A stretch of 64,000 nt of DNA from Microcoleus vaginatus PCC 9802 (lineage in GTDB: Bacteria; Cyanobacteriota; Cyanobacteriia; Cyanobacteriales; Microcoleaceae), in contig CP031740.1 of assembly GCA_022701275.1 (NCBI GenBank), positions 5,593,001 to 5,657,000 on the forward strand, given 5' to 3'. Under the pieces are notes generated by a model. The model searched no databases, was not told the DNA's origin, and saw nothing but the letters and a program-made list of their open reading frames with translations. Positions 48,562-54,464 of the stretch are shown one piece after another. Both the position numbers and the translations under genes were made by a program. Each line of letters starts with the position of its first letter. Positions within the stretch are counted from its first letter, which is position 1.

Positions 48562-49926
48562 ATGACAAAGGACAATCACCGGCAACAATTCCCAGCTTTG
48601 GCCAATAAAGCTTATTTTAACTACGGCGGACAAGGGCCGCTGCCTGAGCCTGCTTTAGAGGCGATTTATGAGGCTTACAAACGGGTACAGCTTGGAGGGC
48701 CGTTTTCGGCGGAGGTGGGGGCTTGGGTGGTTCAGGAGGCGATGCTGACGCGACGTGCGATCGCATCTGAGTTGACCGTACCTCCTGAAACCATTGCCCT
48801 GACTGAAGATGTCACCGTCGGCTGCAATATTGCGCTGTGGGGCATTGACTGGAAAGCTGGCGACCATTTGCTGCTTTCTGATTGCGAACATCCGGGCATT
48901 GTAGCTAGTGTAATGGAACTTCAGCGCCGTTTCAACATTGAGGTTTCGGTTTGTCCGTTGGCGGCTACTTTGAATGAGGGCGATCCGGTGGCGGTGATTG
49001 CTGATAGTTTGCAGCCAAATACTCGCTTGTTGGTTATCAGTCACATTTTGTGGAATACTGGCCAAGTTTTGCCTCTGGCTGAGATTGTGAAAGTGTGTCA
49101 TGAACGCCCCCTAGCCCCCCCTTGCCAAGGGGGGGGACAAGAGGATTTTTCGCTGATTCAATCCGCCGAGGAGGAAACAGATATAAAACCCCCCCTAACC
49201 CCCCCTTGCCAAGGGGGGGGACAAGAGGATTTTTCTCTGGTTCAAGGGGAGGGAAAAGAGGATTTGTCCCTGATTCAAGGGGGGGAACAAGAGGAATTGC
49301 CTGCCAAGGATTACAAAGTTAGAGTGTTAGTTGATGCGGCTCAATCTGTGGGGGTTTTGCCTTTAAATTTGATTGAATCGGGGGTTGATTTTTATGCTTT
49401 TACTGGTCACAAATGGTGGTGCGGCCCGGAAGGTTTGGGGGGGCTTTATGTGAGTGCTGAAGCTTTGGCAGATTTGCATCCGGTGTTTATCGGTTGGCGG
49501 GGAATTGTGACGGATGCTAATGCTAAAGTCCTTGGGTGGAAGTCGGGATCGCAGCGCTATGAAATTGCGACTTCGGCTTATCCTTTGTATGCGGGTTTGC
49601 GGAGTGCGATCGCCCTGCAACATGAATGGGGTACGATCGAGGAAAGGTATGCAGAAATTTGCCGTTTGAGTAAGTATCTCTGGGAGCGTTTATCGGAACT
49701 TCCCGATGTCGAATGTTTGCGAAAATCTGCGCCGGAAGCGGGTTTGGTTTCGTTTCGATTAACTAATGGGATGCCGCACAAAAAGCTAGTTGATGTCTTG
49801 GAGAAACAGGGGATTATGGTGCGGACAATTCTTAATCCTGATTGTGTGCGGGCTTGTGTTCACTATTTTACAACTGAGGCGGAGATGGATAAGTTGGTTG
49901 GGGCGATCGCAATTCAATTCGTATAG
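48562..49926 (+). CDS. PLP-dependent class V lyase (cysteine/cystine C-S lyase-like) with repeat insertions
   Basis: 454 residues. It has KAYFNYGGQGPLPEPALEAI, LTEDVTVGCNIALWGIDWK, HPGIVASVMELQRRFNIEV, VLVDAAQSVGVLPLNLIESG and the Schiff-base Lys in FTGHKWWCGPEGLGGL. The pattern resembles Synechocystis C-DES, which cleaves cystine for iron-sulfur assembly; cysteine desulfurase is an alternative. Between HILWNTGQVLPLAEIVKVCH and VRVLVDAAQ lies an insertion of about 65 residues (49104-49306) made of tandem copies of a GC-rich palindromic repeat translated as PPCQGGGQEDFSL. Terminator at 50008. Confidence 0.85.
   Translation: MTKDNHRQQFPALANKAYFNYGGQGPLPEPALEAIYEAYKRVQLGGPFSAEVGAWVVQEAMLTRRAIASELTVPPETIALTEDVTVGCNIALWGIDWKAGDHLLLSDCEHPGIVASVMELQRRFNIEVSVCPLAATLNEGDPVAVIADSLQPNTRLLVISHILWNTGQVLPLAEIVKVCHERPLAPPCQGGGQEDFSLIQSAEEETDIKPPLTPPCQGGGQEDFSLVQGEGKEDLSLIQGGEQEELPAKDYKVRVLVDAAQSVGVLPLNLIESGVDFYAFTGHKWWCGPEGLGGLYVSAEALADLHPVFIGWRGIVTDANAKVLGWKSGSQRYEIATSAYPLYAGLRSAIALQHEWGTIEERYAEICRLSKYLWERLSELPDVECLRKSAPEAGLVSFRLTNGMPHKKLVDVLEKQGIMVRTILNPDCVRACVHYFTTEAEMDKLVGAIAIQFV
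49104..49306. repeat. Palindromic repeat copies inserted in frame
   Basis: Two full copies contain the near-palindrome CCCCCCCTTGCCAAGGGGGG (from 49115 and 49199), each followed by GGACAAGAGGATTTTTC, then two shortened copies of the AAGAGGAxTTxTC/CTGATTCAAGGGG unit. Total length keeps the reading frame of the PLP lyase. Confidence 0.9.
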
Positions 49927-50007
49927 CCGGGGCAGGTTTATCTATAGTCCTGGACGCAGGGGTAGTCAGAAACCGGGTTTTTGCGAGAATACTTGGTTAC
50001 AGCCTTT

Positions 50008-50038
50008 GAACCGGGCAAAAAACCCGGTTCCTTTTTTT
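50008..50038 (+). terminator. Intrinsic terminator made from an AAACCGGGTTT-type repeat
   Basis: GAACCGGG-CAAAAAA-CCCGGTTC stem-loop (50008-50030) followed by C and seven T residues (50032-50038). It ends transcription of the PLP lyase gene. Confidence 0.85.
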
Positions 50039-50055
50039 GGCATCAATATAATAAG

Positions 50056-50451
50056 ATGGATTCGGTGTTATTGGCTACAGGCTTGCCATGTATGAGTGGA
50101 ATTGACCGTGAAGTTACTCTAGAAACCCGAAGCAGTCTCATTGACAAACATCTCCCCGGAACCCAAAAAGCAGAAAGCGAACTTGAAAGCGAAGGAATTG
50201 TCCATCTCTTTAATGATAGAGAAACAATGGAAAGAGTCGCCGCAGAAATCAAGACAAGAGGCGAACGCACAGGAGCGGACGATCCAGAGGATAATTATGA
50301 ACGCTATGGATTGTACTTTTCAGAACAAATTGGTTATATACTGAAAGCAGACGGTACTCGGATACCACTAAACTACGGTGAAATAAAGATTAAGAAAACC
50401 ACAGGTAAATATCATGTCATACCTCGCACAAGACCCCGTACAAGCTACTAA
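50056..50451 (+). CDS. Putative small toxin-like protein (BECR/EndoU-like pattern)
   Basis: About 131 residues from ATG 50056 (an inner ATG at 50092 is possible). Sequence landmarks are ETRSSLIDKHLPGTQ, GIVHLFNDRETMERV, ERYGLYFSEQIGYI, GEIKIKKTTGKYHVIPRTRP. This domain recurs at the end of large polymorphic proteins; the His in DKHLPG and the C-terminal YHVIPR invite comparison with EndoU/barnase-like RNases. No upstream delivery region. The following gene overlaps by 38 bases and could be its immunity partner. Tentative. Confidence 0.55.
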   Translation: MDSVLLATGLPCMSGIDREVTLETRSSLIDKHLPGTQKAESELESEGIVHLFNDRETMERVAAEIKTRGERTGADDPEDNYERYGLYFSEQIGYILKADGTRIPLNYGEIKIKKTTGKYHVIPRTRPRTSY

Positions 50452-50692
50452 AATCAGTCAAGAATCAGAGCAAGAGAGTGAGTGGGAGTTTGCGGAAATC
50501 TGGGCTGATACTCTGATATCTCCTCCTTATATCCTGATGTTAGTTAAGGAAAAATCAGGTAAGTTTTGCATCCATAACCCGGCACAAAATTATAAAATTA
50601 TTTTTTCTAGTGACAATTACGAAGCTGCTAAAATGTGGCTCCTAGAGGATGAATATGAGCGTTTGAATAGTCGCATTTTACAAGAAGTATAA
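50414..50692 (+). CDS. Small acidic protein, possible immunity partner
   Basis: 92 residues, unrecognised: MSYLAQDPVQATKISQ, a Ser/Glu-rich stretch, WEFAEIWADTLISPPYILML and an acidic C terminus. It overlaps the preceding toxin-like gene by 38 bases in another frame, a tight coupling usual for toxin-immunity pairs. Function inferred from arrangement only. Confidence 0.5.
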   Translation: MSYLAQDPVQATKISQESEQESEWEFAEIWADTLISPPYILMLVKEKSGKFCIHNPAQNYKIIFSSDNYEAAKMWLLEDEYERLNSRILQEV

Positions 50693-50726
50693 AGTAATGT
50701 CGCGAAGAGGGATTTGATTATTTATG

Positions 50727-51095
50727 TCACCAAACTTCGTTCCCCATAGCAACTCCACTGTCAATCTCATTATGAAGATTCTCAGGCGCGATCGCCTCAA
50801 CCAACTCCTCAAGGGAATACCGCCGACGAGTTACGGATTCGATAATTTTCTCAGCGTCAATAGAGGCATCTATTTCCTGAGAGTGGGCGGCATAAAAAGC
50901 GAGAACATCGTTCACTTGAGCTTCACTTAAGTCATACTCAGCCGCAATTTGGTTTGGCGAAAAACCCCATTTCTGGGCTGCGATGACTATTGTTTGCACC
51001 CGCAAGCGAGTGCCGCGCAAAACTGGAACGAGTTGGCCACTAGCGCCGCGCACATAGGTAATTTCAGGAAAAGTGCGATCGTCATTCTGTTTCAT
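50727..51095 (-). CDS. DUF433 / MazE-tail chimeric antitoxin-like protein
   Basis: 122 residues. The first ~70 match DUF433 (ITYVRGASGQLVPVLRGTRL, VIAAQKWGFSPNQIAAEYDL, VNDVLAFYAAH), a winged-helix family usually paired with PIN-like toxins. The last ~30 (RRRYSLEELVEAIAPENLHN, then GVAMGNEVW) match the toxin-binding tail of MazE antitoxins. No PIN or MazF gene is adjacent. Instead it is the third gene of the ParA/ParB-like operon, 12 bases after the ParB-like stop. Confidence 0.75.
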   Translation of the reverse strand: MKQNDDRTFPEITYVRGASGQLVPVLRGTRLRVQTIVIAAQKWGFSPNQIAAEYDLSEAQVNDVLAFYAAHSQEIDASIDAEKIIESVTRRRYSLEELVEAIAPENLHNEIDSGVAMGNEVW

Positions 51096-51107
51096 GGAAA
51101 ATTGGTA

Positions 51108-51665
51108 TTAATTAACGGTTAAAAAATCGGATACCAGGGGAATTTTTGCTTTGCCGATTCCACATTTTAAAGTAGTCAAAAAGTTTAGGCTTGTAGGCTT
51201 CTTTGTCTTCCTGTATTCCATGATAGCCTTGGCAGCGTTTAAGGCATCAACCTTGCCAAAACTAGGCTGTTGAGCTTTGATGCGCTCTAGTGCTTCCTGT
51301 ATTTCTTGCTCGGAAGCGACAAGGATGTTAGTTGCTACTGTAGGCGGAGTAATAACCAGCCCAGCTTCTATTTGTATCTGTTCCAGCATTGGCTCATCAA
51401 CAATGATACACCAGACGAAATCCTTTTTAGCTAAACGGGCTGCATCTAATATCTGAGTATTGAAAACTGATTGGTAGTTGTCTTCATCTAAGGGCTTAAC
51501 TACAATAGGCAAAATGTTTTTTTCCGTTTTACTCAACTGCTCTGCTATGGCTTCGATTTGTTTGGCAGCTACATTTGACTTACCCTGAATAAACTTACAT
51601 GGTAATTGCAAAACTTGTCCTAGTGGAATGTCAGCCGAGAATTCTTCTTCTTGAAAAGGTGCCAT
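51108..51665 (-). CDS. ParB/sulfiredoxin-like partner protein
   Basis: 185 residues. The N-terminal IPLGQVLQLPCKFIQGK, AAKQIEAIAEQLSKTEKNIL PIVVKPL pattern (given in pieces) is the ParB N-terminal nuclease-type fold, but the classical GERR motif is absent. The C-terminal part (VDALNAAKAIMEYRKTKKP) is helical and unassigned. It lies between a ParA-nuclease fusion (9-base gap upstream) and the antitoxin-like gene, as ParB would. A short ParB-like adaptor is the best description; DNA binding is not shown. Confidence 0.65.
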   Translation of the reverse strand: MAPFQEEEFSADIPLGQVLQLPCKFIQGKSNVAAKQIEAIAEQLSKTEKNILPIVVKPLDEDNYQSVFNTQILDAARLAKKDFVWCIIVDEPMLEQIQIEAGLVITPPTVATNILVASEQEIQEALERIKAQQPSFGKVDALNAAKAIMEYRKTKKPTSLNFLTTLKCGIGKAKIPLVSDFLTVN

Positions 51666-51674
51666 AATTGCCTG

Positions 51675-53057
51675 CTAATTATCGATAAAGTTGTGCTGGA
51701 GAAATACTTCTTGGGCGAGGTTTTTGTAGAGTTTGGTGATGGGGGATTTGTGCCAGCAAATTACTGGTCGTTGTTGAAATTCTGCAACCTTAGTCTGAGC
51801 GTAACTTTTTAACTCAGTTTTGTAGGGCTTTCCAGTGAAGTTTAGTTGTGTGATTGTATCGTTGATGTGATTCTGGAGGATGCTGCCCTTTTCAGCAGGA
51901 CAATTGCTGAACACTAAACCAAGGTTCCAGGGAGCAACAGGCAATTCCCCCTTCTGAACCCTAGCATTTCTCCATCTAGGAATGGCCTTGTCAACTCCTG
52001 CTGCATGATGCAGTGATTTTTTGTCAAAATCCACAGGGATTAAAACAGTGTCGCAAGAAGCTAGCATCGCCAATGTCAAGATATCTGCTGTAGGGGAAGC
52101 GTCAATGAATATGTAGTCGTAGTCATCACTCAGCAGGTTAATAATTGTCTTGACGAATGACCTTTTGAGCGAGTCTGGAAAGTTGGTGCTATCTCGAAAA
52201 GCTTTTAACTCCTCCGTCTCTCCCGGCAAAACTGACAAGGAAAAAGGCTTGCTGTCAGTGGTCGGGAAATTGCGGAGTTGGACTGCATTGCTCAAAATCT
52301 TCTTGGTAGTTTTGTCGTTTTTAACTTGAATTTGATCGCTGCAATCCTTCAAGTAGTTCTTAACTTGAATCTTGGCTTTCAGCCCTCTGGTTAAATCAGT
52401 TTGCGGGTCTAAGTCAATCAGCAAAACCTTCTTGCCTTCTGTCGCGAGTGCTGCGCCTAGATTGATGGTGTTAGTTGTCTTTGCTACGCCTCCTTTCTGA
52501 TTCCAAATGGCTGTTACCAAAGCCCGCTGAGGAGTCAAGCAATACTCTAATTGACGCAAAAGCTTATGAAAATTTGCTGCTGTCACTTTTAGCACGGGAG
52601 TTAAAGGGAAAACCAGCCCTTCAACTCGCCGCCAAACTTGAAAGAAGTCACCATTAAATACCCATCCGTAAGCAGCTAGATAGTCAAGCGGTACTTTTGT
52701 ATTGTCGAGGTACTGCTTAATTCCATTGTTACCTGTACTATTATAGCCTACCGCATCTTTATACAACTTTTGCTGCTGGCAAAAATCGGAGAACCCTTGC
52801 TCTGGAGCGTCATAAAATAAGCTACTACGCTTTTTAATCTCAACAACTATTCTAGGTGGCTTGTCTAATTCGTCATATATTAAGTAATCGGGTTTTAAGC
52901 CTGTTCCAGAACCTAAACTTCCAGTCGTTATCTGCTCGAACTTAAGACCTATAACCTCCCATATCAGGGGAATTAAGTGTGCTTTCAGATCGGCTTCTGA
53001 GTAGTTACTTGGTAGAGATTTCCAGCGCTCTATTAACTTACTGATACTGGTTCCCAT
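51675..53057 (-). CDS. ParA-type ATPase fused to an N-terminal PD-(D/E)XK nuclease-like domain
   Basis: 460 residues from ATG 53057 (an upstream in-frame start adds 20). Residues 1-160 look like the N-terminal nuclease domain of HsdR type restriction subunits: EADLKAHLIPLIWEVIG, then LKPDYLIYDE and IVVEIKK, giving PD57...E73-x-K75, followed by GWVFNGDFFQVWRR. Residues 178-460 are a full ParA ATPase: AIWNQKGGVAKTTNTINLG (Walker A with the signature Lys), LLIDLDPQTDLTRGL, YIFIDASPTADILTLA. The combination with ParB-like and antitoxin-like genes downstream is unfamiliar to me. A defence or element-maintenance role is inferred. Confidence 0.8.
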   Translation of the reverse strand: MGTSISKLIERWKSLPSNYSEADLKAHLIPLIWEVIGLKFEQITTGSLGSGTGLKPDYLIYDELDKPPRIVVEIKKRSSLFYDAPEQGFSDFCQQQKLYKDAVGYNSTGNNGIKQYLDNTKVPLDYLAAYGWVFNGDFFQVWRRVEGLVFPLTPVLKVTAANFHKLLRQLEYCLTPQRALVTAIWNQKGGVAKTTNTINLGAALATEGKKVLLIDLDPQTDLTRGLKAKIQVKNYLKDCSDQIQVKNDKTTKKILSNAVQLRNFPTTDSKPFSLSVLPGETEELKAFRDSTNFPDSLKRSFVKTIINLLSDDYDYIFIDASPTADILTLAMLASCDTVLIPVDFDKKSLHHAAGVDKAIPRWRNARVQKGELPVAPWNLGLVFSNCPAEKGSILQNHINDTITQLNFTGKPYKTELKSYAQTKVAEFQQRPVICWHKSPITKLYKNLAQEVFLQHNFIDN

Positions 53058-53121
53058 TTTTACCCCAACAAGATTGTGGCTATCATTGTTAAGTTTTACA
53101 GTACCATAAATAAGCAAAAAA

Positions 53122-53154
53122 ATCGCCCTTTCTCTAAAACAAGCAAAGGGCGAT
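53122..53154 (-). terminator. Intrinsic terminator of the ferrochelatase-like gene
   Basis: ATCGCCCTTT (53122-53131) and AAAGGGCGAT (53145-53154) form a perfect 10-bp stem. The minus strand runs on into a T-tract (A-run 53116-53122). It lies between two minus-strand genes and separates their transcripts. Confidence 0.75.
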
Positions 53155-53174
53155 CGACTTTTTAACTCAACTAA

Positions 53175-54464
53175 TTAATGACTGTGCCCGTGCCCGTGAG
53201 AATGGCCATGCCCGCCATGAGAATGACCGTGTTCACCATGAGAATGCCCGTGCCCGCCATGAGAATGCCCGTGATCACCATGAGAATGCCCGTGATTACC
53301 ATGAGAATCCCCGTGTCCGCCATGAGAATGCCCGTGCCCTTCATGAGAATGCGCGTGCTCGCGGTGCGCTGAAGCCAAACTCGGATTAACAGCAACCGCA
53401 GTTTCACTCAACAACGCTTCAATCTGCGGATTTGCCCACTCAGCGGCCATTTTCAGAAACTCTGGATGGTCATTCACGCAAGGCAATTTGCGGTAAGTAA
53501 CTCCTTGACGCTGTTTCTGCAAAGACTCAATAATGTGGTCTACATCTAACAATGTTTCGTGATTTTCTGTCGCAAATCCGATCGGCATAAAGACGATCGC
53601 AGTTGCACCCAAATCAATCAAATTCTTCGCAGCCAACGTCGCATCCGGCTGTGTCCATTCAATCAGCGGTGTGTCGTGATTCAGCCAACCCACCGAAATC
53701 AAAGGATAGCGATACATCAAACGTTCCCGCACGCGATCGTACAAAGCTTGACTTTCCACAATTCCCGAAGTAAAGCCCTTCGCCTTGTGCGGACAACCGT
53801 GATTCATCAGCACAATCCCAATCTGAGAAGGCAAATGCGCTACAGCTAAATCGTTCTTAATTTCCTCTTCAACCAAATCCGCCATTAGCTGGATGTAAGC
53901 AGGTTCATCGTAAAAAGAAGGAATGTAGCGTTGTCCTTTTACCCAATGTTCCTTACCATCAAAGGTTTGTGCTAAAGCTTTATTCACCTGTTCGACTGCA
54001 ATGCCGCTGGTGAAAACAGAATCAACTACCAACAGGGGATAAATCAGAATTTTGTCAAATCCTTCTGCTTGAATTTGAGGGATTACTTGTTCCGGCAAAA
54101 ACGGGGCGCAAAAGTTAAAAGCTTTGAACACTTTTACTTTATCGCCCCATTTCTCCTGTAAATTCTTTTCAATCCCAGCGCGCTGCTGTTCAAAAATTGC
54201 ATTGTGCGGCGAAACGAATTGACCGTGTTGGTGACTCCACTCGTGCAAGTCAAAGATTGCCAAAATCTTCGCCAGCGGCGGATAAATCCAAAGCGGTACT
54301 GGCGCAAACTTTGCCGTAAGCAAATTTAAAGCTTGTTCGTTGTAGTTGGCAAAATCGTCGTAGCTTTCGACTTCGCCGTAACCCATCAGTAATACAGCAA
54401 CCCGATCATTACTTGCGGGTGCTGCAGATGTTTTGGACTCGATTTTTTCTGGAGAAGCAACCAC
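53175..54464 (-). CDS. Ferrochelatase-like class II chelatase with a His-rich tail
   Basis: 429 residues. The body resembles ferrochelatase/HemH-type chelatases: VAVLLMGYGEVESYDDF, the catalytic-type VLMNHGCPHKAKGFTSG, and TAIVFMPIGFATENHETLLD, where ENHET matches the metal-binding Glu/His region of ferrochelatases. The last ~70 residues are tandem HGHSHGG-type heptads (21-base DNA units, eight or so). Such tails bind nickel, cobalt or zinc. The tail may store or deliver metal, or be a different chelatase's specificity element. Exact substrate cannot be set. Confidence 0.8.
   Translation of the reverse strand: MVASPEKIESKTSAAPASNDRVAVLLMGYGEVESYDDFANYNEQALNLLTAKFAPVPLWIYPPLAKILAIFDLHEWSHQHGQFVSPHNAIFEQQRAGIEKNLQEKWGDKVKVFKAFNFCAPFLPEQVIPQIQAEGFDKILIYPLLVVDSVFTSGIAVEQVNKALAQTFDGKEHWVKGQRYIPSFYDEPAYIQLMADLVEEEIKNDLAVAHLPSQIGIVLMNHGCPHKAKGFTSGIVESQALYDRVRERLMYRYPLISVGWLNHDTPLIEWTQPDATLAAKNLIDLGATAIVFMPIGFATENHETLLDVDHIIESLQKQRQGVTYRKLPCVNDHPEFLKMAAEWANPQIEALLSETAVAVNPSLASAHREHAHSHEGHGHSHGGHGDSHGNHGHSHGDHGHSHGGHGHSHGEHGHSHGGHGHSHGHGHSH
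53184..53360 (-). repeat. 21-base coding tandem repeat (His-rich tail)
   Basis: About eight imperfect units with core CATGAGAATGCCCGTG on the plus strand, encoding HGHSHGG/D/E/N heptads. Confidence 0.9.

What the first reader, a model, noticed from the sequence alone, without database searches (positions are those of the whole stretch)
50727..53057. Three-gene operon: PD-(D/E)XK-ParA fusion, ParB-like protein, DUF433/MazE-like chimera
Seen: three minus-strand genes with 9- and 12-base gaps. The first fuses an HsdR-N-like nuclease domain (D57, E73-x-K75) to a complete ParA ATPase with the signature lysine. The second is ParB-like but lacks the GERR motif. The third joins a DUF433 wing to a MazE toxin-binding tail, with no toxin gene beside it. 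Known: ParA/ParB move or position DNA; PD-(D/E)XK domains cut DNA; MazE tails neutralise toxins. Inference: a compact self-regulated system, perhaps DNA-surveillance defence or maintenance of an integrated element, in which ATPase-driven location controls a nuclease. I do not know a described system with this composition.
Basis: partly seen in the sequence, partly recalled or inferred. Interest (0 to 1): 0.8.

Follow-up and report, generated by a model that had tools for sequence, protein, structure and literature searches.

The report
Nuclease-ParA and ParB-like gene pair
Many cyanobacteria carry a two-gene unit in which a DNA-partition motor (ParA) is fused to a domain that looks able to cut DNA and is paired with a ParB-like DNA-binding protein; what it does is unknown, and it may be a new way of policing or positioning DNA.

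Summary

Gene 1 fuses an HsdR_N-type PD-(D/E)XK domain to a full ParA ATPase. D, E and K are conserved: 118/118, 118/119 and 119/119 of top homologues with letters there; 120/120 in homologues of a second subfamily about 25-30% identical to this one; 48 of 51 unique locus copies. Gene 2 is a ParB/sulfiredoxin-like domain without GERR, plus a DNA-binding-type tail (ComEA-like HhH, or Rho_N/SAP). In 386 cyanobacterial genomes gene 2 follows gene 1 in 5 of 5 subfamily A and 34 of 44 subfamily B places; 7 of 7 plasmid records with gene 1 also have gene 2.

Gene 3 (DUF433) belongs to a variable insertion site: it occurs there without genes 1-2, and is lost or truncated beside them elsewhere.

Where the replicon could be told, most copies are chromosomal. 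Two plasmids read in full carry the pair beside another ParA or ParM. No parS-like repeats or clear defence island were seen.

Best reading (moderate to low confidence): a partition-derived, ATP-gated nuclease acting on unwanted or mis-managed DNA. My paper searches found no description.

The parts
51675..53057 (-). gene 1: HsdR_N-type nuclease domain fused to ParA ATPase, 460 aa
52593..53057 (-). gene 1 residues 1-155: PD-(D/E)XK (HsdR_N) domain; D57 codon 52887-52889, E73 52839-52841, K75 52833-52835
   Evidence: conservation; homologous to the subfamily B domain by hhalign, prob 98.9, of which 18 of 20 match PF13588 HSDR_N_2; within subfamily A only 2 of 47 match HSDR_N directly
51675..52529 (-). 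gene 1 residues 177-460: complete ParA (deviant Walker A KGGVAKTT, K188/K193, D215/D217, D319)
51108..51665 (-). gene 2: ParB-like partner, 185 aa, 9 bases after gene 1
51351..51629 (-). gene 2 residues 13-105: ParB_N/sulfiredoxin-like fold, GERR replaced by NTQI
51117..51329 (-). gene 2 residues 113-183: helical C-terminal domain, ComEA-like HhH (DNA-binding type)
51088..53121 (.). approximate footprint of the two-gene cassette: G012 and G016 have homology on both sides of this interval but neither gene
50727..51095 (-). gene 3: DUF433 protein with MazE-like tail; neighbour, judged not part of the cassette

Best explanation
A two-gene, partition-derived nuclease system. Shown: gene 1 joins an HsdR_N-type PD-(D/E)XK domain with conserved catalytic residues to a complete ParA ATPase; gene 2 is a ParB-fold protein that lacks the GERR motif and ends in a DNA-binding-type domain; the order nuclease-ParA then ParB-like recurs across cyanobacteria, often with overlapping stop and start codons. 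Inferred: ATP-bound ParA dimerises on DNA and so brings two nuclease domains together. Gene 2, placed on particular DNA by its C-terminal domain, controls the ATPase cycle and thereby where or when DNA is cut. The most likely biological role is removal of foreign or mis-managed replicons (plasmid or phage DNA), with the cassette moving between loci and plasmids as an accessory module.
For: D/E/K conservation: 118/118, 118/119, 119/119; 48 of 51 locus copies; 120/120 of the closest homologues of one subfamily B member, and invariant in 20 diverse B proteins. HSDR_N_2 in 18 of 20 subfamily B N-domains, above Pfam's cut-off for 3 of 9 whole B proteins (L050, L067, L072); P0118 of subfamily A above the HSDR_N cut-off. 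The A and B N-domains are homologous. ParA residues retained. Tight pairing: A 5 of 5, B 34 of 44, plasmid records 7 of 7 (two of the seven are the same L. boryana plasmid in two strains). Patchy in the genus: 3 of 29 genomes have the close orthologue. Insertion and loss at a hotspot: G002 keeps only about 45 bases of gene 1. Two plasmids with the pair also have another ParA/ParB or ParM, so a pure partition role looks redundant there. A precedent for a ParA that evicts plasmids is ParI (PMC9178275, passage read).
Against: No cleavage, ATPase or protection data exist. The window's own N-domain has no nuclease hit, and in subfamily A only 2 of 47 members match HSDR_N, 3 MmeI_N and 1 VRR_NUC at E 0.05. 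Profile searches of the solved structures with the N-domains gave no credible relative. PADLOC: only weak ParA-region matches for gene 1. Neighbours are mostly housekeeping genes, not a defence island. Several lineages keep it at a fixed chromosomal place (six loci of genus g44), and four small-genome relatives keep gene 1 alone, which fits a house function as well. Selection on the nuclease domain is purifying but weaker than on ParA in Microcoleus (dN/dS 0.51-0.83 against 0.36-0.43). Three locus copies lost D or D and K.
Confidence: 0.38

Rival explanations
1. A partition or positioning module: a parAB operon whose ParA has an extra N-terminal domain used to bind DNA (as the HTH of type Ia ParA does), with gene 2 as an unusual centromere-binding protein.
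For: Operon order parA-parB; ParA residues retained; the pair is on 7 plasmid records, one of 12.6 kb with CyRepA1 and no other annotated par gene.
Against: Catalytic D/E/K need not be conserved for DNA binding alone. Where the replicon could be told, 19 of 21 subfamily B places are on contigs of 1.7 Mb or more. Two UHCC 0870 plasmids carry another ParA/ParB or ParM, and the host chromosome has a separate ParA with two ParB_N matches beside it, one above the cut-off. No iteron or parS-like repeat cluster was seen near the pair in the window. GERR is absent.
Confidence: 0.25
2. A chromosomal house function in cyanobacteria: an ATP-controlled nuclease for recombination, repair, chromosome copy control in polyploid cells or processing of incoming DNA, occasionally picked up by plasmids.
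For: Shared chromosomal position in six g44 loci and stand-alone gene 1 beside a ribosomal S2-like gene in L222, L224 and L225; ComEA-like HhH in gene 2; no full-length copy found in phage or viral collections.
Against: Not detected in most genomes (B in 42 of 386 at E 1e-60; A in 5 of 386; only the best 4 candidates per genome were scored) and its close orthologue is missing from 26 of 29 genomes of this genus; decaying copies; different sites in different lineages.
Confidence: 0.22
3. An addiction-type selfish module: gene 1 a toxic nuclease held in check by gene 2, like a toxin-antitoxin or restriction unit.
For: Two compact coupled genes, small footprint without mobility genes, solitary insertion at many loci and on plasmids, neighbouring PIN/DUF433 genes in some loci.
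Against: Gene 1 occurs without a recognised gene 2 in six full-length places, so it is not obviously toxic alone; the family matches seen for gene 2 include no antitoxin (and the part shown).
Confidence: 0.12

Closest known systems
ParABS (type I) partition operons
   Same: ParA with signature lysine followed by a gene for a ParB-fold protein on the same strand
   Different: ParA carries a catalytic-looking nuclease domain; the ParB-like partner lacks GERR and has an HhH or Rho_N/SAP-type tail; no parS found; in this genome an extra set beside the host's own ParA/ParB genes
HsdR_N / PD-(D/E)XK nuclease domain of type I restriction enzymes (PF04313, PF13588) and MmeI_N
   Same: N-terminal domain with E..D..E-x-K; Pfam cut-offs passed by some members
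   Different: fused to a ParA ATPase instead of a helicase; no HsdM or HsdS beside it in the window
ParI, orphan ParA of a Pseudomonas putida genomic island (PMC9178275, passage read)
   Same: chromosomal ParA outside the host par operon; plasmid destabilisation is a possible role
   Different: ParI is an orphan without ParB; as reviewed its Walker A/ATPase region is needed; no nuclease domain is mentioned in the passage read
ParB-CTPase fold fusions surveyed in PMC12704722 (abstract and section 7 read)
   Same: ParB fold joined to other domains, often outside the canonical operon
   Different: that section names HTH, HNH, UPF0020, DUF3850, CBS and others, not HhH or Rho_N; it reports only the DUF3850 fusion as consistently beside parA; its PF02195 cut-off would probably miss gene 2 (all ParB_N matches are below cut-off)
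McdAB carboxysome positioning (PMC9178275, passages read)
   Same: ParA-type ATPase with a small partner in cyanobacteria
   Different: McdA lacks the signature lysine and McdB is unrelated to ParB

Membership tests
ParA/MinD (deviant Walker A) ATPases | KGGxxKT with signature and catalytic lysines, Walker A' and B aspartates | tested here: met
   K188, K193, D215, D217 and D319 in the window; K188 in 53 of 54 and K193 in 54 of 54 unique locus rows; 120/120 in subfamily B homologues
ParABS partition system | ParB partner with the ParB_N fold | tested here: met
   by model and weak profile matches; against: a PF02195 search of the own genome did not list gene 2
ParABS partition system | GERR motif for CTP | tested here: not met
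ParABS partition system | central HTH domain in ParB | tested here: inconclusive
   C-terminal half matches HHH_3 or Rho_N/SAP in part of the members; the family table was cut at 25 rows
ParABS partition system | parS/centromere sites near the operon | tested here: inconclusive
   only short chance-like repeats; no binding-site search beyond that
ParABS partition system | needed for inheritance of the replicon | not testable with these tools
   two Nostoc plasmids have another ParA/ParM; ABRG53g has none annotated
PD-(D/E)XK (HsdR_N) nuclease | D..E-x-K motif | tested here: met
PD-(D/E)XK (HsdR_N) nuclease | family profile above curated cut-off | tested here: met
   for some members only: L050, L067, L072 (HSDR_N_2) of 9 B proteins and P0118 (HSDR_N); the window protein itself has no such hit and is linked through
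PD-(D/E)XK (HsdR_N) nuclease | fold | tested here: inconclusive
   the model was confident (pLDDT 93) but ParA filled the PDB lists; one phage HsdR_N protein matched at prob 0.96, E 0.09; the domain was not folded alone
Type I restriction-modification | HsdR helicase, HsdM, HsdS | tested here: not met
   gene 1 has ParA instead of a helicase; in the window its neighbours are a chelatase-like gene and genes 2-3
MazE antitoxin (gene 3) | profile cut-off and adjacent toxin | tested here: not met
   31.4 of 113 bits; no adjacent toxin recognised; a PIN gene lies beside its homologue in G002
Known anti-phage systems (PADLOC 2023) | match to a defence model | tested here: inconclusive
   PDC-M28B over residues 179-217 only (1e-5); gene 2 Cas11b 0.014
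McdAB | McdA without signature lysine; McdB not ParB-like | tested here: not met
   K188 present; gene 2 ParB-like; definition from PMC9178275 passages

The most novel reading that the evidence does not exclude
A previously undescribed class of DNA-surveillance system in which the partition motor itself is the DNA-cutting enzyme: a ParA dimer, licensed by ATP and steered by a GERR-less ParB-like loader, inspects DNA across the nucleoid and destroys replicons that lack, or carry, the right mark. The same machine is used by host chromosomes against invaders and by plasmids against rivals.
Probability: 0.25. Interest if true: 0.87.

Novelty: new variant of a known kind. Interest (0 to 1): 0.6.

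Why it matters
ParA ATPases are textbook DNA movers. A family spread over the cyanobacteria in which one carries a conserved, catalytic-looking nuclease domain and usually keeps a ParB-like partner would link segregation machinery to DNA destruction. It is directly testable: subfamily B homologues of gene 1 are listed under names such as Nostoc punctiforme PCC 73102 and Synechocystis sp. PCC 7509, harmless culture-collection strains. It also shows that proteins named 'AAA family ATPase' or 'cobyrinic acid a,c-diamide synthase' hide a distinct architecture.

Tried and rejected
Three-gene system: rejected. MazE identity of gene 3: below cut-off. Plain plasmid partition: weakened by chromosomal copies, second par systems and the nuclease motif, but not excluded. 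Phage origin: phage records gave only partial matches (127 records, none covering 80% of the query; the 20 listed cover residues from about 156 on); viral contigs gave 1 weak ParA-only locus for gene 1 and none for gene 2. Defence-island enrichment: neighbours of 13 of the 19 loci were listed (93 proteins) and 90 of them scanned (left out: L173:6735-7337, L181:147-500 and a gene 1 piece of L185). PADLOC matches were few per protein family (table cut at 25 of 69 families; in the part shown mostly methyltransferase models with one member each, PDC-S03 with two), Pfam was mixed (25 of 96 families shown), and there was no matched background set, so no enrichment is claimed either way. The context listing was cut in the middle (parts of L199-L202 not seen). 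Terminal or target-site repeats of the cassette: nothing beyond chance-like short matches (the 14-nt inverted pair 50713/53118 is AT-rich and judged chance without a test). Solved relatives of the N-domain by sequence profile: no credible hit. Sigma-70/terminator scan uninformative.

Paper searches without a description of this system. Papers read in part: PMC10899382 (passages), PMC9178275 (passages), PMC12704722 (abstract/outline, section 7, passages; its supplement not seen). Others were seen as search listings with abstract starts only.

Full report
OBSERVATION. The window lies at 5593001-5657000 of a single-contig 6.7 Mb genome; close protein hits that bear names are Microcoleus or relatives. 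The three minus-strand genes and the 9- and 12-base gaps are as described.

LINKAGE. Among 386 cyanobacterial genomes (only the best 4 or 8 candidates per genome scored), gene 2 lies just downstream on the same strand in 5 of 5 subfamily A places (one of them, G132, a broken gene 1) and 34 of 44 subfamily B places. Of the ten misses, four are fragments (two in G127, G191, G179:C88), and six full-length copies (G347, G320, G424, G287, G223, G138) have none found. Of 47 gene 2 places, 8 have no gene 1 of these lists beside them. Downstream ORFs of 75 aa or more of the six were inspected and no gene 2 was recognised. On plasmids, the 7 records with gene 1 (E limit 1e-20) are the same 7 that have gene 2; two of them are the same L. 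boryana plasmid from two strains. In many B loci the two genes overlap by 4 bases. All 19 loci found in a scan of 84,980 species' genomes with two narrow subfamily A patterns are cyanobacterial by title.

GENE 3 IS A NEIGHBOUR. The genome has 20 DUF433 matches. The interval between the aminotransferase-like gene (48562-49926) and the chelatase-like gene (53175-54464) is a variable site in the genus. Of 20 fetched loci, 2 have genes 1-2 (G011, G027), and 9 of the other 18 have a full or partial gene 3 match near the chelatase-like gene without them. In G011 homology to the window runs from 51057, that is, through only the first 39 bases of gene 3; in G027 gene 3 is a 90-aa version. In G002, gene 3 is 93% identical and converges with a PIN-domain gene, genes 1-2 are gone, and homology ends 45 bases inside gene 1. 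G012 and G016 show homology up to 51083 and from 53122 without the pair, which gives a footprint of about 2 kb for the cassette and no mobility gene in it. The MazE-like tail of gene 3 matches short ORFs of the same genus (mostly residues 77-122, 69-78% identical), so the chimera looks like a local recombinant (inference).

CONTEXT. The close orthologue is in 3 of 29 genomes of this genus. Of the 44 subfamily B places, 19 are on contigs of 1.7 Mb or more, 2 are on known Nostoc UHCC 0870 plasmids, and 23 are on draft contigs that I did not assign. Copies that were read lie between unrelated, mostly housekeeping genes (the listing was cut). In six of the seven g44 loci, which were fetched, the position is shared (one flank in 6 of 6, the other in 5 of 6), and in L222, L224 and L225 a lone gene 1 sits beside a ribosomal S2-like gene (my reading of the translation). 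Three Nostoc UHCC 0870 plasmids carry the pair; the two read in full also carry a separate ParA/ParB, or ParA and ParM. Pseudanabaena plasmid ABRG53g (12.6 kb) has CyRepA1 and no other annotated par gene. Of the 77.8-kb plasmid pLBA only 32.8 kb was read. The host chromosome has its own ParA near 811067 with two ParB_N matches next to it, one above the cut-off. A PADLOC and Pfam scan of 90 neighbours from 13 of 19 loci gave a mixed, mostly housekeeping picture without a matched control. In Microcoleus, dN/dS is 0.51-0.83 for the N-domain and 0.36-0.43 for ParA (three pairs each): the N-domain is under weaker constraint, which tempers the claim of strict catalytic selection in this genus.

MECHANISM. 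Step 1 (inferred from ParA biology): ATP makes a dimer that binds DNA non-specifically. Step 2 (inferred): dimerisation pairs the nuclease domains. Step 3 (inferred): gene 2 sits on chosen DNA through its tail and triggers the ATPase, so cutting, or its release, is local. Step 4 (least certain): the target is foreign, rival or mis-managed DNA. A genomic-island ParA that evicts plasmids, ParI, is a precedent for step 4 (PMC9178275, passage). The stand-alone copies of gene 1 mean that step 3 cannot hold everywhere.

KNOWN OR NEW. The parts belong to known families. The fusion and its two-gene unit were not found described in my searches. The 2025 survey of ParB-fold fusions (PMC12704722; abstract and section 7 read) reports only a DUF3850 fusion as consistently next to parA; its main text holds no 'helix-hairpin-helix', 'HhH', 'Rho' or 'SAP domain'. 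Its curated cut-off for PF02195 would probably miss gene 2. I call it a new variant of a known kind (a par operon with a nuclease ParA) and leave open that it is a new class.

Noticed in passing
49926-53175 and the same interval in L153-L172: A variable insertion site in the genus: PIN+DUF433 (L153), a two-gene AAA-like plus TPR unit (L160, L169, L171; AAA match below cut-off), Uma2 (L163), HEPN/MNT-like genes (L165, my reading) and DUF6972 occur in different strains.
   Followed up: partly
50092-50451 and 50414-50692: A DUF6972 protein (PF22319, 145 bits) overlapping a 92-aa gene without family match; both recur at this site in other strains and may be a unit of their own.
   Followed up: partly
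53178-53400: The chelatase-like gene ends in a His-Gly-Ser repeat tail that appears to differ in length between strains.
   Followed up: no
L222:1040-2494, L224, L225: In small-genome cyanobacteria gene 1 stands alone beside a ribosomal S2-like gene, keeping D and E-x-K.
   Followed up: partly
L197:5666-6763, L198:9488-9940: An IscB-like ORF (my reading, no family search) directly beside the subfamily B pair; shorter in L198.
   Followed up: no
L227:2835-3206: A lone, shortened subfamily A gene 2 next to a separate ParA/ParB-like pair (my reading) on a 34-kb contig that also carries a subfamily B pair.
   Followed up: partly
L189:1364-4304: The Gloeomargaritales chromosome has a second, partial gene 1/gene 2 copy about 6-8 kb from the full one.
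   Followed up: no
outside the window, G000:C1:5664913-5665134: A 94-aa frame with a ParB_N match above the cut-off (possibly a sulfiredoxin) beside another DUF433 gene, about 8 kb past the window's end.
   Followed up: no
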